Source: a virus
Virus record (IMG/VR): IMGVR_UViG_3300044997_001296
Location: 1 to 46,207 of that record
DNA length: 46,207 nt
Reading direction: 5' to 3' (one strand)
Positions 4,416-28,365 of the stretch are shown piece after piece; position 1 is the first letter of the stretch; every line of letters starts with the position of its first letter. Position numbers and translations under genes: made by a program. The notes beneath the pieces were generated by a model, which saw only the letters and a list, made by a program, of their open reading frames with translations, was not told where the DNA came from and ran no database searches.

Positions 4416-7400
4416 TTATGCCAGCCAGGTGATCGAGACATCCAACTTGGTTGGGTCCGTCTCGTTTGCCTTCAGGCTGCTGACAGCATAGTTGCCGCAG
4501 TCATAGCAGATGGTCGAGTTCTTGATCTTCTGCGTGTGTCGGTTGCCGCACTTCGGACACACCATACCGATGGGCAGTTGCTTCTCGGCTTCGCGGTTGA
4601 AGTCGGGCATTGCCGTTCGCAGATAGACATCTGCGTCAACCGTCGCCGCGATTCGGTACATGGCAGGCCCAACGTTAGCCATTGCGCCCATGCCAGGAGC
4701 GGGAGCGGCACCAGGTGCCATGCCACCGCTCATACCCATATAAGGGGCAGGAGGAGCTGCGGGAGCAGGAGCTGTGGCTGCGCCAAGACCCATGTCGTCA
4801 CCCAGACCCATGTCGGGAGCGGGAGCGCCCATATATTCGGGCTTGTCTGCACCGCCCGTATCACCACCGATAGTGATGATCTCGATGCTCTGCATCACCT
4901 TGTAGCGGGTGCCGCACGAGTTGCACTCACCCTCGCTGTTAGCCAGGTCCACGTCGTCGCTGCCACAGATCGGGCAGACCGTGCCGATAGGCTTGTTCTT
5001 GCCAGGCTCGGGCATTGCGTCCGTGTCCGCAGGCTCCTTCACAGGGTTGTCACCTGCAGCGGTGGGCACCGTCAGCGCGGAAACGCCCAGTCCCTCAGGA
5101 GCGGACATTCCCATGCCCGTGGCGTCCATACCAGGAGCCATCGGCGCTGCGCCCATGCCAGGAGCCGCCTGAGCGAATCGCTTCAGGACCTCCTGTCGGC
5201 GGGCCAGTCGGGCCTCCTTGGCTGCTTCCGACATCACCACCGCGGGAGGCAATGGTTTACCTGCAACGGCTGCCGCATCATCCACCACAGGAGCTGCGAT
5301 GTCCACGCCACCGTCGGCCTTGAAGGTCTTGGTGACACGAGTTTGTACCGACGCGGTGATATCGCCATTCTCGGTAACATTCAGATCGGTGAAGCTGAAG
5401 GTGCCAGGGTCTACCGTGAAGCCCTGCGCCGAAAGAATCTCGATGGCTTTCTGGCGGAAAGTATCCTCAAAGGCCTCATCCTTGGGGTCGATGCCTCCGA
5501 GATCCTCCTTGCGGCAGACAAATCGGATAGACTCACACTTCTCTTCGGTCACCGTAATCTCAGCCGTGCGCTCGCCCTGCTCCTTGGCGGAGATTGCCTT
5601 GGCAACAAGCTGAGCAGCCACCTTGGGTTCTGCAGCAAGCTTGGCTGCTGCCTCCACCACAGACTTGGTGGGGAACTCAAAGTTGGTTGCGTAGTCGGCC
5701 AGCCAGCCAATGGTGGACTCGGCCACATCGGCCTTGGAGGCGACGCGCTGGTTGCCCCAGAATTCGCGTCGAGCGCGAACCGTCAGACGGGCTTCGGTGG
5801 CAGTAGCCGTACAAGCCTCGTTGATCTTGGCCGTCAGCGTCTTGCTGTCCAGGCTGGCCACCGAAGCGACCACCTCTTCGGGCGTTGCGTTGCTCTCTTC
5901 GCTCGCCATCACCATTGCCGAAATCACAGCCTTCAGGTGATTCTTATTGAAAGGAGCATCGCTGGCCTCGGAGGCAAGCGCAGCCTTCAGTCGCTCTTCG
6001 CGGCTGATATTCACATTCACAGGAGCGGCCTCAGCCACCACGCCATCGCGCAGCGCCTCTGCAGCAGCGGTGACGGCCTCGGTGGCTGTCTCCGCCATCG
6101 AAGCGGCGACTCGAACGGCCTCTGCCAGATCGGCAGCCGTGATCTCCTTGCTGACAGCCTCACCAAGCGCATGCATCAGAGCCGCGTCTGGGGCCATCAG
6201 GTTGGAAGCGATCTTGTGGAAGGCGCGTCGCTTCGATTCGACGATGCGGGCCGTGTTGCCCAGGCTTGCCAGGGCGATCAGATCGGCGAAGTCTTCGCGC
6301 TGAGCAAGCGCCGAAGCGGTGGCCACGATCTCTGCAGGAAGCACACGAGCGGCGATAACCGCCTTGCCCATCGCCTCCTTTGCAGCAGCCATGACAAACT
6401 CTGCCTCTGCAGGTCCGTACTCTTCGCGGCAGCACTCAAGCTGCTTCTCAAGCACCTCTTCAGGGTTGCCCTTGCGAGCATCTTCCAGAAGCGCTTCCTT
6501 GACATCGCAATGCGTGTCGGTGACACGGCGATGATACAGGCCAGCCTTCTCATCCAGAAGGTTCTCCTTCACATCATCGTCGGTGTCGCGGCGCTTGGAG
6601 AAATAGTCGCCCCCAAGCTGCTCCTGCTGGGTCTTGTCACCCGCAGGCTTGGTGCGCATCGATTCAAGCTCTCGCTCCTTGATGTCGGACTCTTTGCCCT
6701 TGTGAAGCTTGGCAAGCTCGACCTCCTTGACGTCGCTGTCGGTGTGAGGCTTCCAGCCTGCGGTCTTCACTGTCTGCGCAAACTCCTTGAGCAGGTCAGC
6801 AGCGACGCGCGTGCCTTCGCCGTTCTCCATACGCTGGAGCTGGTTTTCAGAGATAATTGGCTCCCACTCGGCCTTGACGCCGTTCACATAGCCCGAGATG
6901 TTGCCGTCGGTAGAAAGAACAACGCGGTGGCCCGAACTATCCTCGACCTTGAAGTCGATTGAAACGGCGGCGGCGAGCTTTTTGCGCTGCTCAGATGCGA
7001 TCTTTGCGAAATGATCCATAGGTTGGTTTCCTCCCGCCCCTGCGAGCACGGGCGCGTTGGTCTTGATGTTTGTTTGGCGGCCAGCGGCGGCTCGCACGTT
7101 TGGATTGCTTTGGTAAATGGCGGCGAGGGTGTTAGTATCCACGCCGAGCGAATCTTTCAGGCCGATGAGAGCCTGTCCGAATTCAATCACATTGTTTGTC
7201 AGTCGATGAGAGGGAGCGCCTGCACGAGAGGCGGTTCTGGTGCTGGCATAGACCTCTCGACTGCCATCTTTAGAGGCCCAGACAAGCATAGTAGGCTCAT
7301 TCGAGGCCTGTACAACACCGCCGCCAATGCCTGCTGGCATCGCCATCGGCCCGACCATTCGTCCCACATTACCTGCGGGACTCCAGTTAATCGGCTGCTG

Positions 7401-9836
7401 GGCGGCTCCCTGATTGAGCGGCGTGCCGCCTCCCTGAGGAGCCATCTGGCCTCCTGCGCCCTGCATCTGACCCTGATTGATGGGCTGCTGATTACGAGCG
7501 CCTGTGTCCACGCCGTCGTCAATCATGTCCTGCATGGTGTTCTGAAGGTCTGCCATGCTCTTGGTGATTTTGCCGACGTGCGTCAGGTCTACATTGTCCT
7601 TGCGGGCAAAGAGGTTCATAACGGCAACTTCAAGAAAGTTGAGCGCCAGATTTAAAAGGTCAAGAATGTTGAGGCCTGAACTCGGATCGATTCCCAGTGC
7701 GTTCAGAACCGCGGAGACGGTGGCGTTTTGGTCCGCACCCTCCCCTGCCATGAGCTGGCCGCCCACCAGAGTGCCTGCAGCCTGAGCGAGCCGCACCGCG
7801 CTTTGCGCCGCGGCAGCGATCTCACGAAGTCCCGATTCGAACTCGTGTCGCTCCTCGGAGTTTTCAGGCACCAGAGTGCTTGCCAGCACAATGCTTGAGC
7901 AGATCGAGTTAGCCCGTCGCTCCATGTTCATGGCAGCGTCGAGAATCTCATCCACATCATAAAGCTCTTCGATTTCACAGGTGTCGAACGCTCCGTCGCT
8001 CACGCAGCTCAGCTCGATAAACTTCAGTCCGTGGTTCTTCTCATAGACCTTTTCGCCTGTAGCAGGGTGCTTCTTGCCCTTATAGCGCTTCAGACAGTCG
8101 CAGTATTCCTTCTCGGTGGTGGCGACATTACCGCACTTGGAGCAGGTTCCGCTCTCCACCTGACAGTTGTGAACAGCCACACCTGAAACGATGTAGGTGT
8201 TGCTTTCTGTCTCAAAGTTATGAACCGCACCTTCGTACCACACTTGGTCAATTTTCTTGATGGGCTTGCAAATATAGCCTTCAAGCACACTGTCCATCTT
8301 GTGCTTGGCAGTTCTGACTTGGAAGGACAATCCTTTACTCAGTTCATCAATGCACCCAGAAGGGATTTGGACAAAAAATGCTGCTTTGCCATCAAAGCCC
8401 TTGCTCTCCACCTGCAAAACACCCTTGTCAAAGGACAGTGTATTGCCGTTCAGTACAGCATACTTACTGTGCTTGATTCCGAGCCTATGCATGATGAGCG
8501 ACATCTGCTCCAGTAGAATGTGCGATTTTGACCAGGCACAAACGGATGTGTGGTGGACGTTAGGAAGATTTTTTGCGCCTCCGTCTCCGTTAATCCAGGC
8601 CTGAAGTAAATTTAGTGCGGTTTCGCGATCAGAGAAAACAAGCTGATCGCTCAGAGTTTTTTGCCCACTGAACTCTCCGCAGTGTGTATAGAACCAATCA
8701 GCAATGTCTTCAGAGGTCACGCGAACCACTGCGATATTTTTCGCGGACCGCTCGTATACGCGTGCTTCAACTCCGAACTCCTGGCGGAATAACTCTACTG
8801 TCTCTTTCACCAGAGTACCGAGTTCATCCATGCAAAAGCTAAACTCGATTTCGGCACGACGTCCATTTCGCTTCAAATAATTGCCTTCAGCGGCGAAATA
8901 TCCCAGTAGTCTGGCCTTACCTGCGGAGAGTGAAAAACCGTTATCCCAACCGTTAATCGGGAACAGCGCCACATCACCCACCTTCAGGTCTTTTGCTTCT
9001 ACAAAAGAAGGCTTCATCTGCTCATAAGCATAGTGACGATTCGCTCCCTTGCCTACGCGCTTTTTGCGATTAGCCCACTGCTCTTTGGTAAACACCAGAT
9101 ACGGGTGTTCCCTAGTGCTTTGAATATGCGTGCCACCCTCAATGTCGAGAGATACCAGATAATCGATATTTATCTTGACCTGTCGATTGATGATTTTAGT
9201 GGGCTGACCATCTGCATCGATGAGAACTGTATCTTGAGAAACGTTCTCGATAGGCATGTAGCCCTTATCAGTCAAAACGCGAGTTCCAGGCGGGAAGCAC
9301 CCCATCGAAACGTCGTGAATAACACCCGTCCGAATGTTGCGAGCAATGTCGGGATAGGCCTCTTCGTCCACGAAGAAGGTGCAGTAGACGCAGTTCTGTT
9401 CTTCGTCCCACTCCGCGTAGACCACCATACCTTTGGCCTGCTCGATATCATCGTTTTTGTGATTCGTGTAGATGGGGCAGCCTTCAAAGGTCTTGTAGGC
9501 AGGGATTTTCTCGCCCTTAACCTCGACGTCCTTGAGAAGTTCGGCCTTGGAGAAGTAGTCGCCGTTAGCGTTTACGGCGTCGGCATCAATAGCGCGCGCT
9601 CGTACCCACAGCAGCTTCGCGCCCTTGCGCGCCTGCATCTCCCTGACAATATCGAAATCCTTGTACTTTTTGAACACCTCTTCGGGGTTTGCGTACAGGG
9701 ACTGCAGTCCGATCTTTGCCGCTTCGCGAATGGGGATAGATGCCGTGCGGAGCATGTGATCGCGCGCAGCATTACGGTCTTCCTCCTTCAGGAAGCTATG
9801 AATATGAATGATTCCGCCTTTAGCCTCGCGATACAT
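4416..9836 (-). CDS. Giant prohead protease with intein and zinc ribbons
   Basis: 1806 residues from the ATG at 9836 (an in-frame TTG sits one codon earlier; AGGAG lies 14 bases upstream). Residues 70-177 look like an HK97-type (U35) prohead protease: NANGDYF, then PIYTNH with likely catalytic His126, then HDVSMG with likely catalytic Ser177. An intein fills residues 180-557. After it the protein resumes with a cysteine-rich segment (CSKCGN, YCDC), usual after the serine in large-phage proteases. About 1200 residues follow, far longer than the usual 200-400: helical stretches, a Gln/Gly/Pro-rich linker, four DVKE-type repeats near 6420-6750, Gly/Met/Ala-rich linkers, and two zinc ribbons (VCPICGS...CNSCG and VCPKCGN...CYDCG) near the end. 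Likely cleaves scaffold and virion proteins; the tail may itself be core or scaffold. Confidence 0.78.
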   Translation of the reverse strand: MYREAKGGIIHIHSFLKEEDRNAARDHMLRTASIPIREAAKIGLQSLYANPEEVFKKYKDFDIVREMQARKGAKLLWVRARAIDADAVNANGDYFSKAELLKDVEVKGEKIPAYKTFEGCPIYTNHKNDDIEQAKGMVVYAEWDEEQNCVYCTFFVDEEAYPDIARNIRTGVIHDVSMGCFPPGTRVLTDKGYMPIENVSQDTVLIDADGQPTKIINRQVKINIDYLVSLDIEGGTHIQSTREHPYLVFTKEQWANRKKRVGKGANRHYAYEQMKPSFVEAKDLKVGDVALFPINGWDNGFSLSAGKARLLGYFAAEGNYLKRNGRRAEIEFSFCMDELGTLVKETVELFRQEFGVEARVYERSAKNIAVVRVTSEDIADWFYTHCGEFSGQKTLSDQLVFSDRETALNLLQAWINGDGGAKNLPNVHHTSVCAWSKSHILLEQMSLIMHRLGIKHSKYAVLNGNTLSFDKGVLQVESKGFDGKAAFFVQIPSGCIDELSKGLSFQVRTAKHKMDSVLEGYICKPIKKIDQVWYEGAVHNFETESNTYIVSGVAVHNCQVESGTCSKCGNVATTEKEYCDCLKRYKGKKHPATGEKVYEKNHGLKFIELSCVSDGAFDTCEIEELYDVDEILDAAMNMERRANSICSSIVLASTLVPENSEERHEFESGLREIAAAAQSAVRLAQAAGTLVGGQLMAGEGADQNATVSAVLNALGIDPSSGLNILDLLNLALNFLEVAVMNLFARKDNVDLTHVGKITKSMADLQNTMQDMIDDGVDTGARNQQPINQGQMQGAGGQMAPQGGGTPLNQGAAQQPINWSPAGNVGRMVGPMAMPAGIGGGVVQASNEPTMLVWASKDGSREVYASTRTASRAGAPSHRLTNNVIEFGQALIGLKDSLGVDTNTLAAIYQSNPNVRAAAGRQTNIKTNAPVLAGAGGNQPMDHFAKIASEQRKKLAAAVSIDFKVEDSSGHRVVLSTDGNISGYVNGVKAEWEPIISENQLQRMENGEGTRVAADLLKEFAQTVKTAGWKPHTDSDVKEVELAKLHKGKESDIKERELESMRTKPAGDKTQQEQLGGDYFSKRRDTDDDVKENLLDEKAGLYHRRVTDTHCDVKEALLEDARKGNPEEVLEKQLECCREEYGPAEAEFVMAAAKEAMGKAVIAARVLPAEIVATASALAQREDFADLIALASLGNTARIVESKRRAFHKIASNLMAPDAALMHALGEAVSKEITAADLAEAVRVAASMAETATEAVTAAAEALRDGVVAEAAPVNVNISREERLKAALASEASDAPFNKNHLKAVISAMVMASEESNATPEEVVASVASLDSKTLTAKINEACTATATEARLTVRARREFWGNQRVASKADVAESTIGWLADYATNFEFPTKSVVEAAAKLAAEPKVAAQLVAKAISAKEQGERTAEITVTEEKCESIRFVCRKEDLGGIDPKDEAFEDTFRQKAIEILSAQGFTVDPGTFSFTDLNVTENGDITASVQTRVTKTFKADGGVDIAAPVVDDAAAVAGKPLPPAVVMSEAAKEARLARRQEVLKRFAQAAPGMGAAPMAPGMDATGMGMSAPEGLGVSALTVPTAAGDNPVKEPADTDAMPEPGKNKPIGTVCPICGSDDVDLANSEGECNSCGTRYKVMQSIEIITIGGDTGGADKPEYMGAPAPDMGLGDDMGLGAATAPAPAAPPAPYMGMSGGMAPGAAPAPGMGAMANVGPAMYRIAATVDADVYLRTAMPDFNREAEKQLPIGMVCPKCGNRHTQKIKNSTICYDCGNYAVSSLKANETDPTKLDVSITWLA
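8166..9299 (-). mobile_element. Intein with LAGLIDADG endonuclease in the prohead protease
   Basis: 378 codons inserted in frame in the protease. The first residue is Cys (CFPPGTRVLT, splicing block A); a block B-like TREHPYLVF follows. The core has two LAGLIDADG-type motifs, LLGYFAAEGNYL and LLQAWINGDGG. The C-terminal end reads VHNFETESNTYIVSGVAVHN with the terminal Asn followed by Cys as the +1 extein residue. All residues needed for splicing are visible, so it should splice itself out, and the endonuclease motifs keep their acidic residues, so homing may still work. It sits directly after VSMG, two residues past the presumed catalytic serine of the host protein. Confidence 0.93.
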
Positions 9837-10024
9837 CAAGGTAGTTGGGTCTCCTGCTTCAATTCACAGAGCGTTTTTTTGAAAATGCTGCCCACGACTC
9901 CGCTCTATGTGCTCTTCTGTGCTAAATGGGCATCAACCTGGCGATTTTCAAAAAACGATCAAAAATCTTCAGGAGTTTTCATCTCTTCTTTTACAGGGAG
10001 GGCGCTCTCTTCACCTGGCAAAAA

Positions 10025-10055
10025 GAAAGACCGCTCCTGAAAAGAGCGGTCTTTC
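10025..10055 (-). terminator. Rho-independent terminator after the portal gene
   Basis: A 12-bp perfect stem (GAAAGACCGCTC/GAGCGGTCTTTC) with a 7-base loop is followed on the minus strand by a T run (TTTTTGCC). It lies 17 bases past the portal stop codon. The gap from here to 9836 is about 190 bases and must hold the promoter and leader of the protease gene; I could not fix a promoter there. Confidence 0.85.
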
Positions 10056-10071
10056 TTCCAATGGACAGGAA

Positions 10072-12522
10072 TTAGAGCACCACATTGCCCTGGGCATCTT
10101 CACCAGGTCTGGCCACCTGGCGAATCGCCTGCATAATAACCTGTGCCACTTCGTTGGGGCGATCATGCAGCTCCTTATCCGTGAATCGAAGAATGGTCCA
10201 TCCGTTGGCAGCCAGCTCCATGTCTCTTCGCTTGTCTCGCGCGATCTTGTCGGGGCTGTTATGCCAGATTTCACCATCGGCTTCGATGCCGATGCGCAGC
10301 GCGGGAATCGCTGCGTCCAATGTGTAGTCGCTGGTCTGCCCCATGCTATACTGAGCATAGATCGCAAAAGGCAGATTGAGGGATGTCAGCAGATAGTAGA
10401 GTTTCTTTTCAATGCTGGTAAACAGCATGGGCTGCGGAGTGTCATCCTTTTTGCCTTTTTTGCCCAGGGCCACGCGCCGCTGAATCTCTTCGCGGGCGGC
10501 CAGAGCCTGTCTGCCCAGACTATCTTCACTGGCCTCAGCGATCACCTTGCCCCACTCACGAATAGCGGAGTGGTTGACAGGGAAGCAGAACGCGCCGCCA
10601 AACGCCTGCGGCTCCAGAGGATTTCCAAAGCCATCATACTCCTCAGGAAGTGCGCCCACCACGCCGCGTCCAGAGACGGGGCGAAGACTCTGCACAAACT
10701 CTCGATGCGCCTGAGACTTGATCGTACGGGATGCGGTGCGCTGCTGCATATCCTGTTTGTAAAGGCCCTCGCGCTCCGCATAGATATCATTGACCACCTT
10801 GGCAGCCAGGCGATAGTTCGACTTGTAGTTCAGCGCGCCGACAGGCGGCATACCGCCCATGTCTGCGCCCATTGGGGGCATCCCAGGGACTCCAGGCGTG
10901 CCGCCCATCGGAGGCGTGGGCATACCGCCCATTGGAGGCATACCGCCGCCAAAGCCTGCGCCCATGTCGCCTGCAAAGCCGTTGCCAAGATCGGTGTTGC
11001 CAATCGCAGGGTTGGCGATGAAGTTGGCCCCCTGCTCCTCTCGCAGGCGCTCGATCTCCTGATCGGGATTGAGGCCAAAGGCTTCAATCGTGGTGTAGTT
11101 GGAGATAACGCCATTGCTGTTGGCGGTGACTATCATCTGGAGCTTGCCTGTCTCATCGCGAAGCTGCAGATCGTCAAACTTGATCTTCGGGTAGACGATC
11201 TCTTCCTGGCCGCGCTCACCTTCAATGACAAAACCGTTCCATTCAGCAACGGGCTTGAAAATCTTCTCTTCGATCCAGCGGGCCACCTCGCGTCGGAAAG
11301 TCTCCAGGCGCTGGGCCATCGCAAGCAGACCCACCTGAGCGTTTCCGTACGTGGGGCCTTCGCCGTTCAGCAGCGCCTTGTTGAGCATCACGCCGTCGAG
11401 AATCTCCTGATCGATCAGTTCAAATTCGTTGGTGAGCTGCAGCACCTTGCCTGATGCACCTACATAATCAAAGTCAAATGCGTGGTGCGTCACCAGCGTA
11501 AGATTCGGATCGTTGGCCACGGCTGCCAGCTCTTCCTGAACGCTATCCAGGTCCGCCTGGTTGGCAGGTCGGTTATCCGATCCGACTTTGACGACCTTAA
11601 CAGGAAGAATGTGACGTTCAGCCACCAGCCACTGGGCGTTGCGCAGCTTGTCTTTGTAGGCCAGTGTGGGGAACAGCGGGCGGATCATCGGGGTGCCGTA
11701 ATCCTCCCAGGGGGTGGAGCCAAACTTGAAATGCTCGATACAGATTGGGTTAAGCTTGAATGGCTCTCCCTTGCGGATCAGACGCCGCACATTGTCAGGA
11801 AGCTCGTCGTAAAACTCGTTGCTCTGTCGCTCCGACACCAGTCGGATTTCGCGCTCGGAAGGCTGATAGCGATAGACGCCCTGCTGCCCAGGAATACCAG
11901 GCATGATATGAACGCTATCGGGGTTCAGGATAGCCAGGCTGCTCCAGGTAGCCCCATCATGATTGCAGGCCTCTCCCGTGCGGCTGTCGATATTACTGCC
12001 CCGACAGTGCTCGCAATCCAGGGACGCCAGCACAAAGCAGTCGCCAAACAGGTGATAAACGCCGCTGATCTCGGGCAGCCACTTCTGAAAGTTGAGCTTT
12101 TGTATGAGCTTTTCAAAGTAGTCTTTCACGTAGGAGCTGGAGCATTCCAGCTTCCAGCCCGAGAACGGGAACATCTTGTAGAAGTTGATCGCCGCGGCGA
12201 TCTTGGGTTCGTTATTGCGCCACCAGTTCGCCCAGAGATAGACTTCGCGACGGGCGTTGGGAACCTGGTAGGCTCGTGCGGTCAAAAAGGGGCTGTAGAA
12301 GTTGGGCGCGGTGGTGATGCTATTGGGCATCGTTTGAGCGGTGCGATAGCTTTTCAGGACATTGGCACCCACCCCCATCGTCACGCGAGAAGAGGCATAG
12401 CGCGGTGTGAAGGCGTCTTTTGCTGCGCTTCCTACAACGCGCTCTCCAGACACGGTTTGCGCTGCAATTCGCATGGCGGTAGCCAGTGTCGGCGTCTCTG
12501 CTGTTGATCCCTGATTAGCCAA
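10072..12522 (-). CDS. Portal protein fused to a DUF559/Vsr-like nuclease domain
   Basis: 816 residues. The start is a TTG at 12522 with CGAGG about 8 bases upstream; no suitable ATG lies nearby. Residues 90-510 look like a phage portal protein, the dodecameric DNA channel at the head vertex, with an EIDQEILDGVMLNKALLNGEG-type helix and a long helix of MAQRLETFRREVARWIEEK type. A possible zinc site (CEHC...C.H) occurs near 170-190. A Gly/Met/Pro linker spans about 513-562. Residues 718-800 match DUF559/very-short-patch-repair nucleases: YTLDAAIPALRIGIEADGE, H754, a DKIARDKRRD run, and GWTILRFTD, giving likely catalytic Asp736, Glu747 and Asp749. It also has one RTAS motif. The portal call is strong from fold signals and position; the nuclease domain is clear by motif. 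Confidence 0.85.
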   Translation of the reverse strand: MANQGSTAETPTLATAMRIAAQTVSGERVVGSAAKDAFTPRYASSRVTMGVGANVLKSYRTAQTMPNSITTAPNFYSPFLTARAYQVPNARREVYLWANWWRNNEPKIAAAINFYKMFPFSGWKLECSSSYVKDYFEKLIQKLNFQKWLPEISGVYHLFGDCFVLASLDCEHCRGSNIDSRTGEACNHDGATWSSLAILNPDSVHIMPGIPGQQGVYRYQPSEREIRLVSERQSNEFYDELPDNVRRLIRKGEPFKLNPICIEHFKFGSTPWEDYGTPMIRPLFPTLAYKDKLRNAQWLVAERHILPVKVVKVGSDNRPANQADLDSVQEELAAVANDPNLTLVTHHAFDFDYVGASGKVLQLTNEFELIDQEILDGVMLNKALLNGEGPTYGNAQVGLLAMAQRLETFRREVARWIEEKIFKPVAEWNGFVIEGERGQEEIVYPKIKFDDLQLRDETGKLQMIVTANSNGVISNYTTIEAFGLNPDQEIERLREEQGANFIANPAIGNTDLGNGFAGDMGAGFGGGMPPMGGMPTPPMGGTPGVPGMPPMGADMGGMPPVGALNYKSNYRLAAKVVNDIYAEREGLYKQDMQQRTASRTIKSQAHREFVQSLRPVSGRGVVGALPEEYDGFGNPLEPQAFGGAFCFPVNHSAIREWGKVIAEASEDSLGRQALAAREEIQRRVALGKKGKKDDTPQPMLFTSIEKKLYYLLTSLNLPFAIYAQYSMGQTSDYTLDAAIPALRIGIEADGEIWHNSPDKIARDKRRDMELAANGWTILRFTDKELHDRPNEVAQVIMQAIRQVARPGEDAQGNVVL

Positions 12523-12561
12523 AAGTAAACCTCGTTATGCACCCTGTGGACTTCATCTGCG

Positions 12562-12567
12562 CTTATA
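12562..12567 (-). promoter_or_regulatory. Candidate TATAAG promoter element upstream of portal
   Basis: The minus strand reads CTGTATAAGCGCA about 40 bases before the portal TTG start. The same 13 bases occur upstream of the UDP-galactopyranose mutase gene. A second TATAAA lies at 12637-12642. No clear -35 box is visible. Candidate only. Confidence 0.35.
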
Positions 12568-12637
12568 CAGCAGTTGGTGAAACCTCAGGGATGCGTTTTT
12601 CCCATTGTTTGATTGGCAACAATAGCGATTCGCACCT

Positions 12638-13105
12638 TTATACGAGTGTGCGTGTCGCGGGGCGTTCGCCCTGAAAGCCAACCCAACCCTTCCCAGAGCC
12701 ATACTGTGGCAGGCCGCGCACCAGCATGGAGCCTGTGCCCATATTCTGCTGGGACATCGACTGAGGCTCCTGGTTCACATTTTGATGGCGGGCTGTTTCC
12801 AACTGCTCTTCGAGAGTCGTGTGTTCGGGATTGCTGTGATAGGGAGAAAGCCGTCGCATTTCGGTGCCCTGAGTAGCAGGTCCCTCATTTGCCGCGATAT
12901 CCACGGTCGTCTCATTGGGCTGACCTTTGTGGTTGCCAACATGATCGGTCTGCCTCACCAGCGTATCCCACATCTGGGCCTGGGGCACCTGAGGTGTCTG
13001 CGCCTCGGAACTCTCAGAAGCAGGCAAGGGAGTGGAGGGCGTGCGCATAATGCCGCCTCCCACTCCCTGTGCCACTGCTGTCTGTTGAGCCAACCGATAC
13101 CACAT
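12638..13105 (-). CDS. Hypothetical virion-region protein
   Basis: 155 residues from the ATG at 13105 (GTG one codon earlier is possible; a weak AAAGAG precedes). No known domain recognised. It is polar, rich in Gln, Pro, Ser and Thr, with little sign of a compact fold. It holds one copy of the LE-x-Q motif (TTLEEQLETARHQN), which also recurs in the next gene upstream. It is 11 bases downstream of that gene's stop and likely co-transcribed with it and with portal. A structural or assembly role near the portal is inference from position alone. Confidence 0.6.
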   Translation of the reverse strand: MWYRLAQQTAVAQGVGGGIMRTPSTPLPASESSEAQTPQVPQAQMWDTLVRQTDHVGNHKGQPNETTVDIAANEGPATQGTEMRRLSPYHSNPEHTTLEEQLETARHQNVNQEPQSMSQQNMGTGSMLVRGLPQYGSGKGWVGFQGERPATRTLV

Positions 13106-13116
13106 CACGGGTCTCT

Positions 13117-14739
13117 TTATTTGCCGCGAGATTTCTCAAGCAGCTCTTCAAGCAGCATGTCGATTTCGTCTTCCGAGAGACCAACACGCTCATATTCCAG
13201 CATCGCTTCGATGGCTTCGTCGCCATAGGCTTCTTCAGAATGCTTCTCTTCAATCTGCGCCCCCAGCGACTCATCCGATTCGGCATCCAGCTCCACGACC
13301 TTGGAAGCGGTGGGGCTGAGCTTTTCGGTGAAGCGAACGCCGCTCATCTCCTCCTGATCGTTGAGAGTTTCGGAGACAGACTCAGCAGGCTTGCCTTCGG
13401 CGGCAAGCTGATGCGCGTAGCTCTCCTCCATCTCTCCGCGATGGCCATTCAGCGATGTAGTCACATCGAGTTGCTGCTCGCGGGGAGTCTCATGCATTTC
13501 GTACATACTGTTGTTTGCCTGCGCTCGAATCTGCTCCTCAAGAACCTTGGTGGCATCGGTGTGCCCCTTGGGCATCTGCTCCTCCAGCGTCTTGTCGGTA
13601 GCCGTCTGTGCCGTCACGCGGCGTCGGAAATTGAACTTGGCCACCTTGGCGTTGATCTCGCCCAGAGGCGTAGCGGCGTCGCTGCGATGGCCTGGCTTGC
13701 CCGCTTTGGCCTTGTAAAGCTGCGCCTCTAGGCTGGCATCGGCAGGAACCTTGTCGCGAAGCTTGTTGACGCCCTGTGTGCTGTCCTCGAAGCGCTTCTC
13801 CAGAGGAATCTCCCCTTCTGTCCAGGGCTTAGCGCGCTCACCTTCCGCAAGCGTCAACAGATTGAACTCGTTATCGGGGTGGCGATGCACATCCAGTCGG
13901 GCCATTGCCTTATCGTGGCTATCTGCGCTCTTGAGCCAGGTCTGATACTGACAGGAGACGCTGCCATCTGCTGCCATGCGGCTGTCGATGCAGTTTTCGC
14001 GGCACTTACTCACCTCCATCGGAACGGGATAGCCCATGACATGCTTGCCCTTGGGGCAGAGCAGATAGGGTTCGCCATCCTGAGTGCGAAGAGTCGTATA
14101 GGCGACGCGAATCGACTGCTCCTTAGGAAGCGTGGAAGCAAAGAGCGAGCGCAGTCGGAACGCGGCGGCATCCAGAGAGGCGTCTTCTCCCTCAAGAATG
14201 CCATTGCGGGCTGCCAACAGAGTGCGACGCTCATTAACATCAGGGGTGTCCGATAGAAGCTGATCGATGGCAACCACCGCCTCCGCCTGATAAAAGCCTC
14301 GGCTTGCCGACTCCATGCGATTTGCCAGTCGCTCCAGTCGAACCGCTTCATTGTCGATTCCACGCGCCGTCTGCACGGCGGCAAAAATCTGACGCAGCAG
14401 CGTGCGACGATGAGCCTGTCGCACTGCCTGCAGGCGATCTACGACCGAAGCCAGCTTTTCAACTGCCTCTTCGGGAGCGACAAAGCGCATAATTCGGATT
14501 ACTCCCTGGCAGCCGCCATCATTCAAAAACTCTTGAACGACAGGATCGTTGTCATTCAGGTCTTCGTCCTGAATGATATCCATCGGAGTCTCTTTCTTGG
14601 AGACCTTTTCGCCTGACTTGATCGCTTCAACAATCTGCTCCATTGTCTCCAGAATAGCCTGCATCAAGCCGCTGCCGCCCAGAAGAGCGTTTTCAATGCC
14701 CTCGGACTGCTTCTCTTTCTTTTCCTTCTTGTCGCTCAT
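13117..14739 (-). CDS. Hypothetical virion-region protein with LE-x-Q repeats and a cysteine cluster
   Basis: 540 residues, ATG at 14739 with AGGTGA upstream. The N-terminal 30 residues are very rich in lysine and glutamate. A helical region (about 85-200) precedes a cysteine cluster near 225-270 (LLCPKGK, then KCRENCIDSR, then VSCQYQTWL), which could bind zinc. The second half has at least four spaced copies of an LE(K/A/E)(R/Q)(hydrophobic) motif: LEKRF, LEAQL, LEEQM and LEEQI, separated by polar linkers. The C-terminus is acidic and helical. The same short motif occurs in the neighbouring 155-residue protein. No function recognised; a scaffold or binding hub for other virion proteins would fit the repeats. 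Confidence 0.68.
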   Translation of the reverse strand: MSDKKEKKEKQSEGIENALLGGSGLMQAILETMEQIVEAIKSGEKVSKKETPMDIIQDEDLNDNDPVVQEFLNDGGCQGVIRIMRFVAPEEAVEKLASVVDRLQAVRQAHRRTLLRQIFAAVQTARGIDNEAVRLERLANRMESASRGFYQAEAVVAIDQLLSDTPDVNERRTLLAARNGILEGEDASLDAAAFRLRSLFASTLPKEQSIRVAYTTLRTQDGEPYLLCPKGKHVMGYPVPMEVSKCRENCIDSRMAADGSVSCQYQTWLKSADSHDKAMARLDVHRHPDNEFNLLTLAEGERAKPWTEGEIPLEKRFEDSTQGVNKLRDKVPADASLEAQLYKAKAGKPGHRSDAATPLGEINAKVAKFNFRRRVTAQTATDKTLEEQMPKGHTDATKVLEEQIRAQANNSMYEMHETPREQQLDVTTSLNGHRGEMEESYAHQLAAEGKPAESVSETLNDQEEMSGVRFTEKLSPTASKVVELDAESDESLGAQIEEKHSEEAYGDEAIEAMLEYERVGLSEDEIDMLLEELLEKSRGK

Positions 14740-14772
14740 CGTGTGTTCACCTGTTAAAGGCCCGCGCCTTGA

Positions 14773-15945
14773 TTATTTCATTCCCATGCTGGACAGCTCT
14801 TCGGCATCAAATCCGCGATCTTCCAGCGCTTTGCGGATAGCCTTGAGTTCCGCATTGACACCCTTGGTGTCCGCGGCTTTCTTTCCGTCGCCCTGTGGCG
14901 TGTCTTTGCCATAGTCTTTAAGGGACATCAGCCAGGTGGCCCGTGCCATCAGCTCGGTGGTGGATCGCTTGGAAAAATCGGCCTTGACATCATAGATGCT
15001 ATTGGCCTCCTGCGCCATACGCGTTGCCGCTACTTTCTTTTGCGGCGCAAGGACAGGATCGACCTGGTGCTTTCGACCACGATTGTCTCCAGGATCAAGA
15101 TTATCGCTGTGATCCAGCTCTAGGCCTTCGCCTACAGTCACAGCCTCAAACTCAGCACCCTCTTCATCACGCTTGGTGACAGCAAAGCGGGCGCGAATAA
15201 ACTGATCGAACTCCTCATCGCTCATGGAGGCCAGACGATGCTGAACGCGCGCCATCAGTTCTGCGGGAATGACCGAAGCCTCTTTCTTGCTCTTTTCAGA
15301 GGACTTGGAATCGCCATCATCACCTTCGCGGCGCTTTTTCTTGTTGTAGTCTCGCACAATTTCAATCGCGCGCTCGATGGTCTCTTCGTTCCACATCTTC
15401 TGCTTGAGCAGATAGCGTGTAATGTCTCGCTTTTCCAGACCGTGGTCGAGAAGCTTACCCACCTTGCCCATTAAAACACGGAAAGGATTGCCGCGCGTTT
15501 TCTTCTTGGGCTTTCGAGCCTGTGCCTCGCGCAGGTTGAAGGTGACGAGGCGAGAAGTCTTTTCATTGCTGGATTCGTTCATAGTCTTCACTTTGTCGGC
15601 AAGGCGCTGCGCAAGCTCCTGAGCCGTCGGGTCGTACTTGCCCGTATTGGGGTCTTTGGTGCGCTTCCTTGGGTCCTGGGCCATATCAATAGCCTTGACG
15701 ATCTTCTGTACGGCGTCGGTCATCTCTGGCCGTGTTAAGCGCCCGAGCACGTCTTCAAAACGAGGCTTGAACTCTATCGCGCTTCGACTATCGGCGCTGA
15801 TGAATTCAGACAAAAGGCCGAGAAGCTCATCTGGCGATACACCAGATGAGCCGCCCTGTGCATTGAGGGGCAGATTGGTTATCCCATTGGCGGGATTGGA
15901 GGCCAGCCCGCCACCAAATGTCTGTGCGGTTTTCTGCCCTGCCAC
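14773..15945 (-). CDS. Hypothetical virion-region protein
   Basis: 390 residues starting at a GTG at 15945, supported by GAGGAG 9 bases upstream (no nearby in-frame ATG). The N-terminus is Gly/Asn/Ala-rich. A basic middle region (KPKKKTRGNPF, NKKKRREGDD, KSSEKSKKEA) suggests contact with nucleic acid or acidic proteins. A segment near residues 155-200 (LLDHGLEKRDITRYLLKQKMWNEETIERAIEIV) has helical helix-turn-helix-like spacing. The C-terminus has a helix of AIRKALEDRGFDAEEL type. Five bases separate it from the gene before. No family recognised. Confidence 0.65.
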   Translation of the reverse strand: MAGQKTAQTFGGGLASNPANGITNLPLNAQGGSSGVSPDELLGLLSEFISADSRSAIEFKPRFEDVLGRLTRPEMTDAVQKIVKAIDMAQDPRKRTKDPNTGKYDPTAQELAQRLADKVKTMNESSNEKTSRLVTFNLREAQARKPKKKTRGNPFRVLMGKVGKLLDHGLEKRDITRYLLKQKMWNEETIERAIEIVRDYNKKKRREGDDGDSKSSEKSKKEASVIPAELMARVQHRLASMSDEEFDQFIRARFAVTKRDEEGAEFEAVTVGEGLELDHSDNLDPGDNRGRKHQVDPVLAPQKKVAATRMAQEANSIYDVKADFSKRSTTELMARATWLMSLKDYGKDTPQGDGKKAADTKGVNAELKAIRKALEDRGFDAEELSSMGMK

Positions 15946-15950
15946 GTGAT

Positions 15951-16817
15951 TTACTCCTCGTCGTCAACCTGAAGGTTCACGTAGTTGTAGATTTCCGAAG
16001 CAGTACGAGCGCGAACGGATGGATTGCCCTCCCACTCGTTATGGCGCTGATTGCGATCCTTGATATGCTTGCCCTTGAATGCCAGGCGCTGCTCGCGCTG
16101 CTCATTCTGCATGGCGATACGCTGCGCTTCCTGCTCGTCAAGCGCATCAAAGTCGATCATGCCAAAGTTGCCCGCAGCCTCGTTTTCAATCGCAGTGCGC
16201 AAAATAGCGCCCGCTCGGCTGGAAAGCACCGTCGGCTTGCGAAGCGCGCCGATCTGCTCGGACTTCTCCTGCTCCCAGATGTCGTGGCGATTCTTACGGG
16301 CCATGCGTCGCTGCTGTGCATCGAGGATCGCCTGCTGAGACTCGGTATCCTGGGTCTCCATGAACGCCTCGGCGACTTCATACATATTGGGTTCCCAGAT
16401 AGAGGCCGCGCCGCGAAACATAACGTTCATGTAGTCTTCGGGGGTGTAGGCCTTCAGGCCGCTGGTGACCTCTCGCGCAGTGTCGCCTGCATCAATGCCA
16501 TAGCCTGCACGACGAATGGAGTGTGGCGAAAAATCTTCCGCCTCCAACTGCTCCAGGCGCTCATCGATGCTCATAGCACGACGCTCCTGGTACACGCTGG
16601 CTCCCTGTACTCGCTCCCAGGAGCGATCCTCATCTTCCAGGCTGGCATCGCGATCTAGGTCACGCTGCTGCTTGGCGATCTTGATCTGGTTTTCCTGAGA
16701 TGCGGTGCGCAAGTGGGCATATGGGTCATTATTCTGCTTGTAAGCACCAACAAATGTCTCCTCCACATAGCTGGGGAGACCCTCGGTTTCAGAAACTTTG
16801 CGAAGAAACTTACTCAT
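15951..16817 (-). CDS. Hypothetical virion-region protein with two RTAS motifs
   Basis: 288 residues, ATG at 16817, weak Shine-Dalgarno (AGGGA about 11 bases upstream). Mostly helical and charged, with long Glu/Arg/Gln stretches (around 60-95 and 230-265) that could form coiled coils. The tetrapeptide RTAS occurs near residue 37 and near residue 272, close to both ends, which would fit processing sites or a shared virion motif. No known domain recognised. It is in the run of genes between terminase and portal. Confidence 0.65.
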   Translation of the reverse strand: MSKFLRKVSETEGLPSYVEETFVGAYKQNNDPYAHLRTASQENQIKIAKQQRDLDRDASLEDEDRSWERVQGASVYQERRAMSIDERLEQLEAEDFSPHSIRRAGYGIDAGDTAREVTSGLKAYTPEDYMNVMFRGAASIWEPNMYEVAEAFMETQDTESQQAILDAQQRRMARKNRHDIWEQEKSEQIGALRKPTVLSSRAGAILRTAIENEAAGNFGMIDFDALDEQEAQRIAMQNEQREQRLAFKGKHIKDRNQRHNEWEGNPSVRARTASEIYNYVNLQVDDEE

Positions 16818-16850
16818 GTCTTTTTGTCCCTAAAAGGTATCTTGCGCTCC

Positions 16851-17069
16851 TTACTCTTTGCCACCATCTGGATTGAGCAGGGCCGAAAGAGAGATGTGGT
16901 TGGTGTGAATCACAGGAAGCCCTTGTCCATCTCCTGCCACGTTCGATGACTTGGTATCAGTAGGCAGAATCATTCTGGCTCTCTGACCAATTTTATCCAG
17001 ACCGTGCTTCTCCAGAAAAGAGATGTAGTGGTCTGAATTGTCGTCGTTTAATCGTCGAATTTCGTTCAT
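16851..17069 (-). CDS. Small hypothetical protein
   Basis: 72 residues, ATG at 17069 with AGAGGA 6 bases upstream, so translation is well supported despite the size. Polar, no transmembrane segment, no recognised motif. It sits in the same orientation and spacing as its neighbours. An 8-bp hairpin lies between it and the gene upstream. Confidence 0.55.
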   Translation of the reverse strand: MNEIRRLNDDNSDHYISFLEKHGLDKIGQRARMILPTDTKSSNVAGDGQGLPVIHTNHISLSALLNPDGGKE

Positions 17070-17089
17070 CGATCCTCTTTGTACAGGCT

Positions 17090-17122
17090 CTCCCCAGTTC
17101 AGACGCTGCTTAAGCTGGGGAG
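17090..17122 (-). other. Inverted repeat in a minus-strand intergenic leader
   Basis: CTCCCCAG and CTGGGGAG form a perfect 8-bp stem around a 17-base loop, between the stop at 17142 and the Shine-Dalgarno of the 72-residue gene. No T run follows, so it may tune expression or mRNA stability rather than end transcription. Confidence 0.5.
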
Positions 17123-17141
17123 TCCTTGAGGGGAATGGGAA

Positions 17142-18197
17142 TTACTTGTCGTACTTGGACGAAAAGAGATCGTCGATCCACTCTTCGGCGCCGTAGCCAA
17201 GCTCGTTCTTCCAGTAGTTGCGGAGCCGATCATAGTCGGCATCGCTGAGGGTCGCGGTCTTGACCAGACCTTCGACGGCAGCCTGCTTGATCTCCTTGTC
17301 CAGCGAGGACGCCATGACGTTCTTGATCTTCTCGCCTTCGGCGGAAAGGGCCTGAGCGGCGGTCTCGGCCTCGCCGAGCATCGCAGCCACATACTCGCTG
17401 GGGAAGCCCGCACTGGCGCACTTCTTGATGAATGCTTCTCGGCTTGCGCCCTTCAGATCAGAAATCTTCACGAAACCAGATGCCGTGCGCACTTCGTTTG
17501 CCTTCGATGTGGCTTCGGCGATCTTCTTTTCAGCCTCTTCCACAGAGTTGACGATAGACATGCGGTAAGCATGGCGCTTGGCGATCTTGGCGCTGCGCTC
17601 CATCTGCTCGCGTGCACCCTCTTCAATCTGAGCGGCGAGTGCCTGTCGGCGCTCATTGCGAGCAGCCAGAATCGTGTTCACCAGTTCGGTGTCGCCCGCG
17701 GCCTTGGCGGCCTCGATAGCCTCGGCGCTGAGCTGCTGAGCGCTGGAGAAGACAATCTTGCGGCGTGGCTGAGCCGAAGCTTCCTTGCCGCGGACAATCT
17801 TCTTGTCCTCATCCATCTCTTCCTCATCGACCTCGTCCTCCTTGGACTTGAACTGATGCTTCTTCAATGCGTCGGGAAGCGACTTCTTGGCGGTGACCAC
17901 TTCGGTCTCCGCTTCTGCGGTTGCTTCTTTGTCTTCGAAGTTCGTCTCGTCGTTCTTCAGCGATTCGAGATACTGCTTGACTTCCTCGGACATGCCCTTG
18001 CCCTCAGCGTCTTCGAAGTTCGTCTCGTCGTTCTTCAGCGATTCGAGATACTGCTTGACTTCCTCGGACATGCCCTTGCCCTCAGCCTCGCGCACCTGCG
18101 CCAGGCGAGAACCAAAGCTGTCCCAGTCAATGCCTGTGAATACTTTTTCCGAGTCCAGAGCGTCACCCTGAATCTTTGTGGGGAAAATGCGTGCCAT
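17142..18197 (-). CDS. Hypothetical virion-region protein with a perfect internal duplication
   Basis: 351 residues. I start it at the ATG at 18197 because AGGAGG lies 12 bases upstream; an in-frame TTG further up would overlap that signal. Residues 38-63 and 64-89 are identical 26-residue repeats (GMSEEVKQYLESLK core), encoded by an exact 78-bp tandem duplication. An acidic stretch (DEVDEEEMDEDKK) and long alanine-rich helices follow; the middle contains RTAS. The C-terminus (YDRLRNYWKNELGYGAEEW) is aromatic. Its ATG directly follows the stop of the DUF192 gene (TAAAATG). No family recognised; scaffold or internal head protein is possible. Confidence 0.68.
   Translation of the reverse strand: MARIFPTKIQGDALDSEKVFTGIDWDSFGSRLAQVREAEGKGMSEEVKQYLESLKNDETNFEDAEGKGMSEEVKQYLESLKNDETNFEDKEATAEAETEVVTAKKSLPDALKKHQFKSKEDEVDEEEMDEDKKIVRGKEASAQPRRKIVFSSAQQLSAEAIEAAKAAGDTELVNTILAARNERRQALAAQIEEGAREQMERSAKIAKRHAYRMSIVNSVEEAEKKIAEATSKANEVRTASGFVKISDLKGASREAFIKKCASAGFPSEYVAAMLGEAETAAQALSAEGEKIKNVMASSLDKEIKQAAVEGLVKTATLSDADYDRLRNYWKNELGYGAEEWIDDLFSSKYDK
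17931..18086 (-). repeat. Perfect 78-bp tandem duplication, two copies, inside a coding region
   Basis: Copies 17931-18008 and 18009-18086 are identical base for base and in frame (26 codons). Identity at third codon positions points to a recent duplication. Confidence 0.95.
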
Positions 18198-18198
18198 T

Positions 18199-21101: not shown

Positions 21102-21127
21102 GGGAATCTCTTGTTCTCCTGACAAAC

Positions 21128-26223: not shown

Positions 26224-28365
26224 TTAGCGCGGTCCCGTGCGAGCAATGCGAGATTTGGGAAGCTGCTGCATCACTTTCGCGGTCAATGCCTCATAGGCTA
26301 CGGCGGCCACAGCATCACAGATGTCGTCTTTGTAGCCTGATAGTGCCTTTATCTCAAAGCGCTTGCTTTTCCACACTTTTTGCAGGAAGGTAAACTGATT
26401 TTTAGCCTCCGCGATCTCATTGAGTTCGCGCACCTGCTCTTTGGCATCCTTGTATTTGCCTCCAGAAAAGCCATAGATGTCGATGCGTTGTTCGCGCATA
26501 AGCTGGATCAGCTCTGTGTAGATTTTGCCCTTGTACTCCTGATTAAACTGGCGCTCAATGGCATTGATCCCCATGCTTTTCAGTCTTAATATCGAGGATT
26601 GACTATGCCACTGGTCAAAGCTCACTTGCTTGAATCGAAAGCGCTTGTGAAGATCGATCACATAGTCTTCCACCTCTTTCTCGGCCACAGGCTGGTTTTT
26701 AGTGAGCGGGTTCCAGAAGTGAATATGGTCGATCACCACGCGGCGCAGCGGCCTGTTGTCGGGGCCGATCTGAACGGGGTAAATCTGCTCCGTATGTGCC
26801 ACAGCCAGTGCATAGTAGTCGCTGGTGCGGGCGGGGTCGAGGTGCAGATAATACTCAATCAGCGGCTGGCCATATTCCGCCCTGGGTGTCGTGCTGGACA
26901 TCGCCCAGAGATTGCTCACCTGCTCTGGAGTGAACATGGGGTCGCTGGAAGCCGCGCCAAACTCAGCGCCAAACTGCATCTGGTATTCGACGGGGTCCTT
27001 GCGTTTCTGCTCTTCCAGCCAATCCTGGTCGATACTCGGGTTGGTGAGCCAGGTGGGAAGCCGCATCACCAGCGTTGTGGGGTCATCCTGCCTGTTTTCA
27101 TGCAGATCGTACAGCAGCCCAATGGGACCTTTGGGGTTGGAGAGCATCATCATCTTGAAGTCTTTGCCAAAGGTAGCGCCTGAAGGTTTGAGATCGTCGT
27201 AAAGCGCATAGTCGAGGCCCGAGTCGGGATTGTCTCCCGCCATCGCCGCCACCTCGTCCATGATGATCGACCAGCAGGTAAGACCCACAAGGCCTGAGGC
27301 GTTGGAGGAGCCGCAGCGCAGCACCAGAGAGCCTGCAAAGAGATTGATCCCTTTTTCCGCCCGCCGCTCGTTCTCTTGGCGGTCGTGATCGGTGAAGAAC
27401 CGCATTTCCAGTTCTGTGTCTTTACCGACATAGGGCTGGAAGAAGGGTGACGCCAGAACGGTCTGTTTGATCTTGGAGAAGATGGCCTTCTTCGCCTGCT
27501 CTTCGTTGCGCGCCACGTTCAGGAGGACGATTTCATCAAACTCCATCAGACCATAGCGCGACTGAGGATGCCCCATAGAGAGCAGTCGGTATAGCTCGTA
27601 GAGGGCCATAACCGATACCAGGAACGATTTTCCAGATCGGCGGCCAAGCACCAGCACCAGCTCCTGGAACTTATAGCGATTACCGCACTTTTCCAACACC
27701 TGCTTGCGCAGCAGGGGGTCAAACTCGGGCGCAAAAAGCAGGTCGCGCTCCGTCTCATAGTTGTCCGTGATGGGCCGCTCGATCAGACCATCGATTTTAC
27801 GGGCATCATCAGGGTTCGTGGCCTCTTCGCGCGCCGCTTCGTAGCGGGCCTCGCGCACGGCTTCATCAAAGCGATCACAGGTCAGACAGGGAGAGTTGGT
27901 GACCGAAAAGACGTTTCTGAGCTGCTTTCCGTCCTGACGGCCTTTATAGACCTTCTCTTCGTTTTCACGTACATACTTCCAGACACAGCTGTCACAGGTG
28001 CCCGAATTACGAACCTCATCGGGCACATCCTCGATCTCCAGATCGGTGTTGCCCTCCTGTCCCATGTAGAAGCACTTGAGGATCAATCGCTGCCACGGAT
28101 AGGGCCGCAGTCCGCAGAAGTAGGGATGCTCGATAAAGGTGACGATATCGACAATCTGATCGGGGTTGAAGCGAGTCTTTTCAGGTTTAGGCGGGGGCAA
28201 AATCTCCGCGCGCACCATCGGCCTTACTTCATCTTCGTACTCGTCTTCGTATCCCTGGGTCTTGAAGTTGTCTTCAAGAGCCGCAAGCTGCTGCATCAGG
28301 GTTGCTTTTGCATCCTGCTGCTGATAGTTTGGTTTAGCTGGTCTGCCGCGCTTGGGTCCTGGCAT
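26224..28365 (-). CDS. terL: Terminase large subunit
   Basis: 713 residues, ATG at 28365 with AGAGGTGA upstream. The ATPase domain has Walker A GRRSGKS (241-247) after VLVL and a Walker B WSIIMDEVAAM with Asp370/Glu371. The RNase H-like nuclease domain shows YLHLDPARTSDYY (Asp510), VSFDQWHS (Asp584) and YKDDICDAVAA near 690 as the acidic triad. This motor pumps DNA into the prohead and cuts the concatemer. An unusual four-cysteine cluster (C124, C127, C160, C163; GTCDSC and SPCLTC) lies between the adenine-binding region and Walker A and may bind zinc. Its neighbour upstream is the likely small subunit. Confidence 0.95.
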   Translation of the reverse strand: MPGPKRGRPAKPNYQQQDAKATLMQQLAALEDNFKTQGYEDEYEDEVRPMVRAEILPPPKPEKTRFNPDQIVDIVTFIEHPYFCGLRPYPWQRLILKCFYMGQEGNTDLEIEDVPDEVRNSGTCDSCVWKYVRENEEKVYKGRQDGKQLRNVFSVTNSPCLTCDRFDEAVREARYEAAREEATNPDDARKIDGLIERPITDNYETERDLLFAPEFDPLLRKQVLEKCGNRYKFQELVLVLGRRSGKSFLVSVMALYELYRLLSMGHPQSRYGLMEFDEIVLLNVARNEEQAKKAIFSKIKQTVLASPFFQPYVGKDTELEMRFFTDHDRQENERRAEKGINLFAGSLVLRCGSSNASGLVGLTCWSIIMDEVAAMAGDNPDSGLDYALYDDLKPSGATFGKDFKMMMLSNPKGPIGLLYDLHENRQDDPTTLVMRLPTWLTNPSIDQDWLEEQKRKDPVEYQMQFGAEFGAASSDPMFTPEQVSNLWAMSSTTPRAEYGQPLIEYYLHLDPARTSDYYALAVAHTEQIYPVQIGPDNRPLRRVVIDHIHFWNPLTKNQPVAEKEVEDYVIDLHKRFRFKQVSFDQWHSQSSILRLKSMGINAIERQFNQEYKGKIYTELIQLMREQRIDIYGFSGGKYKDAKEQVRELNEIAEAKNQFTFLQKVWKSKRFEIKALSGYKDDICDAVAAVAYEALTAKVMQQLPKSRIARTGPR

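What the first reader, a model, noticed from the sequence alone, without database searches (positions are those of the whole stretch)
10072..12522. Portal protein carrying a C-terminal DUF559/Vsr-like nuclease
After a normal portal and a Gly/Met/Pro linker, residues 718-800 (10072-10371 plus a few codons) show the DUF559 core: LDAAIP, IEADGE, His754, DKIARDKRRD, GWTILRF. Twelve such domains would ring the head vertex. It could nick or trim DNA, act in packaging, or be injected to attack other DNA. I know of no standard portal with this domain.
Basis: partly seen in the sequence, partly recalled or inferred. Interest (0 to 1): 0.78.

Follow-up and report, generated by a model that had tools for sequence, protein, structure and literature searches.

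The report
Jumbo-phage portal with built-in DNA-cutting domain
In a group of uncultured giant phages, the ring-shaped protein through which DNA enters the virus head carries a conserved, probably active DNA-cutting domain on its inner end, so each head should contain about twelve tethered nucleases whose job is not yet known.

Summary
Window 10072-12522 (-) encodes one 816-aa protein: a portal core (about 61-505), a Gly/Met/Pro-rich linker, a poorly ordered stretch, and at about 702-804 a nuclease domain of the DUF559/MTES_1575/Vsr group. It passes Pfam's cut-offs, and its predicted fold matches NGO0050 (Z 14.4), homing endonuclease I-Bth0305I (13.5) and Vsr (11.3). It is not an assembly accident: every portal gene of this clade long enough to show it is fused, about 69 IMG/VR contigs, some 300-379 kb. 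The one exception has an in-frame TGA in the linker. The putative catalytic residues are invariant, and the nuclease is under the same purifying selection as the portal core (median dN/dS 0.026 and 0.027; linker 0.124). Phage G and its relatives, the sister group, lack it; no such portal was found among 50,697 phage records. The terminase nuclease is intact, so this is not a replacement. By portal topology the domain lies inside the head. I favour a virion-built nuclease acting on DNA at packaging or head completion; a head-released, injected effector is a close rival. Enzymes fused to portals are already described (PBECR, 2H, Nudix, InPase), so this is a new variant of a known kind.

The parts
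10072..12522 (-). Portal-nuclease fusion gene, 816 aa, TTG start
   Evidence: fused in about 69 other contigs
12343..12522 (-). N-terminal extension (residues 1-60), mostly predicted disordered, with R[TILVM]A[SAQTN] motifs at 18 and 60
   Evidence: pLDDT under 50 over most of it; motifs
10993..12342 (-). Portal core (residues 61-510); the stretch after residue 455 is the C-terminal crown position
   Evidence: phrog_16240 E 1.7e-37; residues 85-453 align to solved portals, Z up to 19.2
10453..10992 (-). Linker and intermediate region (residues 511-690): Gly/Met/Pro-rich 511-560, then poorly ordered 561-690 with short conserved motifs (Y570, A573, R595, A597, V616-G618-R619)
   Evidence: dN/dS 0.124
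10801..10812 (-). RLAA motif (residues 571-574), one of the recurrent head-protein R[TILVM]A[SAQTN] motifs; possible processing or docking site
   Evidence: function inferred
10729..10740 (-). RTAS motif (residues 595-598), same class; a motif of this class is at this place in 24 of 38 aligned portals
   Evidence: function inferred
10111..10425 (-). DUF559/MTES_1575/Vsr-like nuclease domain (residues 700-804); invariant E705, D736, E747, D749, H754, K759, D763, R766, D767, R779
26224..28365 (-). Terminase large subunit of the same phage (713 aa), with conserved Walker A, DE box and RNase H-type nuclease acidic residues
   Evidence: phrog_2 E 1.5e-24; motif conservation in relatives
4416..9839 (-). 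Downstream gene: head maturation protease domain interrupted by a LAGLIDADG intein, with a very long C-terminal extension rich in the same R-x-A-[SAQN] motif
   Evidence: phrog_18299 E 1.5e-13, LAGLIDADG_3 E 1.2e-9; motif

Best explanation
A real portal protein has gained, probably once, at the base of one jumbo-phage clade, a C-terminal PD-(D/E)XK nuclease domain of the Vsr/DUF559 (EDxHD) type, and has kept it as a working part of the virion. Shown: the fusion, the predicted fold, the invariant catalytic-type residues, vertical inheritance, and selection as strong as on the portal core. Inferred: about twelve copies hang by flexible linkers from the crown inside the head and cut or nick DNA as it is packaged or as the head is completed, in a structure- or sequence-limited way (for example at branches, flaps, mismatches or the DNA end), which is why the packaged genome survives. 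It would work in addition to the terminase nuclease, like T4's portal-bound endonuclease VII or the T4 head-completion nuclease gp4, but built into the portal itself. The identity part I hold at about 0.95; the packaging or head-completion role at about 0.4, which is the confidence given here.
For: Pfam and PHROG matches. AF2 model of the domain, pLDDT 84, alpha-beta-beta-beta-alpha-beta-alpha-alpha; VIA Z 14.4 to 3hrl, 13.5 to I-Bth0305I, 11.3 to the Vsr-DNA complex 1cw0; a profile search of the PDB finds 3hrl and 3r3p at 5.5e-6 and 1e-5. Catalytic-type residues invariant in 38 full-length sequences and essentially so in a cruder alignment of all relatives; also kept by the distant L068 and L173. 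Median dN/dS 0.027 core, 0.124 linker, 0.026 nuclease; pairwise divergences of core and nuclease correlate, r 0.93, slope 1.04. Nuclease-bearing portals separate from phage G-like portals in a tree. The portal holds the only DUF559 match above cut-off in each of five genomes of 300-379 kb. T4 portal stem, wing and crown lie inside the capsid (PMC9958956), and the model aligns to solved portals up to residue 455, leaving the rest at or beyond the crown. T4 precedents: endonuclease VII bound to portal gp20 (PMC10893049, PMC3485210) and nuclease gp4 required for morphogenesis (as cited in PMC7824862). Universal retention without swapping suits a core virion role better than an arms-race toxin.
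Against: No biochemistry: activity and substrate are unknown. A lumenal position is awkward for clearing branches, which in T4 stall at the motor rather than inside the head. RusA-like genes are detected in all five large genomes (two above cut-off), so a resolvase is probably available without this domain. The same fold occurs in mitochondrial-ribosome proteins and the FASTKD4 RAP module, so fold alone does not prove cutting. Recurrent R[TILVM]A[SAQTN] motifs on either side of the core may be processing sites, which would fit the release rival.
Confidence: 0.4

Rival explanations
1. Head-borne effector: the nuclease is cut from the portal by the maturation protease, stays in the head and is ejected with the DNA to attack host, plasmid or rival-phage DNA early in infection.
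For: Enzymes fused to portal or MuF proteins have been interpreted as packaged and injected (PMC5512222, PMC9503650). A head maturation protease gene lies next door. R[TILVM]A[SAQTN] motifs are about 10-fold enriched in several head proteins of the clade, and in portals they occur only in the N-terminal and linker regions, not in the core or the nuclease. T4-like head proteases cut at short recurrent motifs (general knowledge).
Against: No swapping or loss among about 69 contigs, and dN/dS equal to the portal core, unlike polymorphic effectors. The motif is not shown to be a cleavage site and is not present in the major capsid protein. No thymidylate-synthase-family gene (the family that includes dCMP hydroxymethylase) was found that could modify and protect phage DNA, though other protection is possible.
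Confidence: 0.33
2. Replacement of a lost terminase nuclease: the portal domain makes the headful or end-generating cut.
For: The domain is at the packaging vertex.
Against: TerL is present in the window and in 23 of 24 relatives searched, with its RNase H-type nuclease acidic residues conserved. The crown is on the opposite side of the portal from the clip that binds the terminase.
Confidence: 0.03
3. Homing or selfish element: an EDxHD homing endonuclease attached to the portal gene, still mobile or decaying.
For: Closest solved relatives include I-Bth0305I. Weak phage matches include homing endonucleases (Rhizobium phages; a Lak ORF). Inteins and LAGLIDADG genes are common in these phages.
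Against: Present in all members, same position, vertical inheritance with the core, no intron or intein boundary, strong purifying selection, single copy per genome.
Confidence: 0.05
4. Non-catalytic DNA-binding or DNA-end-holding domain that keeps the nuclease fold (as RAP domains appear to do).
For: Fold matches to mitochondrial-ribosome and RAP-module proteins. Nothing here tests catalysis. A nuclease facing packaged DNA would be dangerous.
Against: All catalytic-type acidic residues and His754 are invariant across deep divergence, including distant L068 and L173.
Confidence: 0.1

Closest known systems
Bacillus phage G portal (gp14) and its IMG/VR relatives
   Same: Closest known portal core: 31% identity over residues 65-504
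   Different: 648 aa; ends in a Pro-rich tail, no nuclease domain
I-Bth0305I catalytic domain (3r3p), Vsr (1cw0, 1vsr) and NGO0050 (3hrl); Pfam DUF559/MTES_1575
   Same: Same fold; sequence match to the first and third covers the acidic motif
   Different: None of these is attached to a virion protein; substrate here unknown
Portal or MuF fusions with enzymatic domains (PBECR RNase, 2H, Nudix, InPase, ARTs; PMC5512222, PMC9503650)
   Same: Enzymatic domain joined to a head or portal protein and so carried in the virion
   Different: Different enzyme; the passages found do not mention a Vsr/DUF559 nuclease on a portal; here a whole clade keeps one domain without swapping
T4 endonuclease VII (gp49) bound to portal gp20
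   Same: A nuclease brought to the portal to clear DNA for packaging
   Different: Separate protein, different fold (general knowledge), not covalently part of the portal
T4 head-completion nuclease gp4
   Same: REase-fold virion-associated nuclease besides the terminase, required for packaging (PMC7824862)
   Different: TnsA-like, separate protein; not found in five relatives, but that search had no working positive control

Membership tests
Phage portal proteins | Portal fold (wing, stem, clip, crown) | tested here: met
   phrog_16240 E 1.7e-37; VIA Z up to 19.2 over residues 85-453, at rmsd 5-9 A for the best rows; full-length model confidence is moderate, pLDDT 60
Phage portal proteins | Encoded in a head module with terminase, protease and major capsid protein | tested here: met
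   TerL 26224-28365, protease 4416-9839, major head protein 928-1782
Phage portal proteins | Dodecamer at one vertex | not testable with these tools
   Needs virion structure
DUF559 / MTES_1575 (PD-(D/E)XK, Vsr-like) | Profile match above curated cut-off | tested here: met
   DUF559 37.6 bits (cut-off 20.6); MTES_1575 41.5 bits (cut-off 38.2)
DUF559 / MTES_1575 (PD-(D/E)XK, Vsr-like) | Endonuclease fold of this group | tested here: met
   AF2 pLDDT 84; Z 14.4, 13.5, 11.3 to 3hrl, 3r3p, 1cw0
DUF559 / MTES_1575 (PD-(D/E)XK, Vsr-like) | Catalytic-type residues kept | tested here: met
   E705, D736, E747, D749, H754, D763, D767 invariant in A1 and A3
DUF559 / MTES_1575 (PD-(D/E)XK, Vsr-like) | DNA cleavage activity | not testable with these tools
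   Needs biochemistry
EDxHD homing endonucleases | Mobile: patchy presence, intron/intein or free-standing insertion | tested here: not met
   Universal in the clade, vertical, one copy per genome, no insertion boundary
Polymorphic or injected head toxins (MuF-type) | C-terminal effector domains swapped between relatives | tested here: not met
   Same domain in all complete members
Polymorphic or injected head toxins (MuF-type) | Delivered into the host cell | not testable with these tools
   Needs infection experiments

The most novel reading that the evidence does not exclude
A lineage of jumbo phages has made a second nuclease an integral part of the packaging vertex: about twelve portal-tethered Vsr-like nucleases inside the head process the genome during packaging or head completion, in addition to the terminase nuclease.
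Probability: 0.35. Interest if true: 0.8.

Novelty: new variant of a known kind. Interest (0 to 1): 0.58.

Why it matters
Portals are usually treated as passive conduits and gauges; packaging nucleases are thought to sit in the terminase or in separate proteins. A clade-wide, strongly selected nuclease covalently built into the portal, facing the packaged genome, raises a direct question: how does DNA survive beside about twelve nucleases, and what do they cut? It gives a single-gene system for testing how giant phages deal with branches, damage or ends when packaging 300-400 kb genomes, or shows another way of loading a DNA-attacking protein into a virion.

Tried and rejected
Terminase nuclease replaced by the portal domain: rejected, TerL motifs intact in the window and relatives (a first attempt read one strand only and was redone). 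Sole Holliday-junction resolvase: weakened; no RuvC or endonuclease VII match, but RusA-like matches in all five genomes, two above cut-off; the endonuclease VII search's controls rang only once, below cut-off, so its silence is weak. T4 gp4/TnsA-like nuclease elsewhere in the genomes: no match, but the control search also found nothing, so uninformative. Fusion in Lak megaphages: a weak hit (E about 0.01) proved to lie in a homing-endonuclease-like ORF, not a portal. Fusion in other cultured phages: annotated hits lie in helicases, at methylases, in homing endonucleases or hypothetical proteins; three hypothetical ones opened showed no portal annotation; not every unannotated or unlisted hit was opened. 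Internal start just before the nuclease: Met is absent there in several lineages. Prokaryote genome contigs: no relative found. A search for closer relatives of the divergent L173 nuclease returned only itself. Literature searches found no portal with DUF559/Vsr; the library is open-access only.

Full report
Observation. The minus-strand ORF 10072-12522 encodes 816 aa from a TTG start preceded by GAGG. Pfam places residues 702-800 in DUF559 (E 2.3e-9) and 729-800 in MTES_1575 (E 1.4e-10), both above their cut-offs, and residues 227-472 in Portal_Mu; PHROGs gives portal phrog_16240 with E 1.7e-37.

Fold. The nuclease domain modelled alone (110 aa, pLDDT 84) has the order helix, three strands, helix, strand, two helices. 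The best solved matches are NGO0050 (3hrl, Z 14.4, rmsd 1.7 over 93 residues), the catalytic domain of homing endonuclease I-Bth0305I (Z 13.5, rmsd 2.4 over 96) and Vsr bound to DNA (Z 11.3, rmsd 3.1 over 104) (Foldseek). A profile of the family finds the first two by sequence as well. Mitochondrial-ribosome and RAP-module proteins share the fold, so fold alone does not prove catalysis. The portal part aligns to solved portals over residues 85-453 with Z up to 19.2, although the full-length model is only moderately confident (pLDDT 60).

Conservation. Protein searches of IMG/VR gave 68 loci, then further contigs with a portal-core profile. I count about 69 distinct contigs with the fusion. Seven contigs end inside the gene and are uninformative. 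One contig, L049, has an in-frame TGA in the linker; both halves are otherwise intact and its closest relative L165 is fused, so this is a recent event or an error. E705, D736, E747, D749, H754, K759, D763, R766, D767 and R779 are invariant in the two session alignments. In the larger automatic alignment that also held phage G and Tunturi_5, which lack the domain, single deviating letters appear at a few of these columns. The distant L068 and L173, whose portal genes also hold inteins, keep the same acidic residues and His.

Selection and descent. Over 127 pairs with usable synonymous distances, median dN/dS is 0.027 for the core, 0.124 for the linker region and 0.026 for the nuclease. The pairs are not independent and synonymous distances are near saturation, so the comparison between regions matters more than the absolute values. 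Core and nuclease distances correlate at 0.93 with slope 1.04 among 41 sequences. In a tree of the portal core, nuclease-bearing portals separate from phage G, its three IMG/VR relatives and Tunturi_5 (support 0.99-1.0). The simplest reading is one gain at the base of the clade; a single loss in the phage G group is possible.

Surroundings. The window holds the terminase large subunit (26224-28365), the major head protein (928-1782), a maturation protease with an intein (4416-9839), a ribonucleotide reductase, clamp and clamp loader, dUTPase, dCMP deaminase and a sigma factor. Relatives reach 379 kb, so these are jumbo phages. The terminase nuclease acidic residues are conserved across the relatives. 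In five large genomes the portal carries the only DUF559 above cut-off. There is no RuvC or endonuclease VII match, but RusA-like matches occur in all five, and no thymidylate-synthase-family gene was found.

Where the domain sits. In T4 the stem, wing and crown are inside the capsid and the crown touches the packaged DNA (PMC9958956). Portal chains end in the crown (general knowledge), and here the conserved core is followed by crown-position helices and then the linker. The default is therefore that the nuclease is in the head lumen, away from the terminase. This is inference.

Mechanism. Two readings are close. In the first, the nuclease works in place on DNA during packaging or head completion, limited by structure or sequence. 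T4 offers precedents in portal-bound endonuclease VII (PMC10893049, PMC3485210) and in gp4 (cited in PMC7824862). In the second, the maturation protease releases it into the head and it is ejected, as proposed for other portal or MuF fusions (PMC5512222, PMC9503650). Universal retention and core-like selection favour the first. A recurrent R[TILVM]A[SAQTN] motif favours the second if it is a protease site: it is about ten-fold enriched in several head proteins of the clade, and in portals it is found only outside the core and nuclease. I did not show that it is cleaved, and it is absent from the major capsid protein. The motif definition was chosen after looking at these proteins, so the enrichment is descriptive.

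Novelty. No record among 50,697 phages has a portal place covering 80% of the query, and the annotated domain hits in phages are in other kinds of protein. I found no paper on a portal with this domain. Because enzyme-portal fusions are described, this is a new variant of a known kind, with an unusual and testable feature: a clade-wide nuclease built into the packaging vertex.

Noticed in passing
window 4416-9839 (-), residues about 181-560 of the product: A LAGLIDADG intein interrupts the head maturation protease (CFPPGTRV...VHNC); the homologue in L040 is 1434 aa against 1807 aa here and appears to lack it, so the intein seems polymorphic.
   Followed up: partly
window 4416-21125 (-), and homologues in L001-L068: A short motif R[TILVM]A[SAQTN] recurs in several head proteins (protease extension, portal, 2481, 13117, 15951, 17142 genes), about ten times more than in shuffled sequences, at shifting positions; candidate maturation-cleavage or docking motif.
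   Followed up: partly
L086-L089, L096 (TerL of G001, G002, G009, G012): Terminase large subunit genes of several relatives carry an insertion of about 350 aa at the Walker A region (about query residue 246-265), probably an intein.
   Followed up: no
L068 and L173: Portal genes of the two most divergent nuclease-bearing relatives are interrupted by inteins, L068 by apparently two.
   Followed up: no
L049 position 9696-9698: In-frame TGA in the Gly-rich linker separates portal and nuclease in this one contig; other genes there also end in TGA, so a changed code is unlikely.
   Followed up: partly
L170 (1016-aa portal ORF): A phage G-like portal with a different C-terminal extension of about 450 aa of unknown function.
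   Followed up: no
window 12638-14739 (-) and 4416-9839 (-): Recurrent [TVS]LEEQ[LIM]-like motifs in three neighbouring head-module proteins.
   Followed up: no
window 24160-25002 (-) and the end of the window near 1-700 (-): A LAGLIDADG gene next to the terminase, and what looks like another homing-endonuclease-like ORF starting at about 700 on the minus strand.
   Followed up: no
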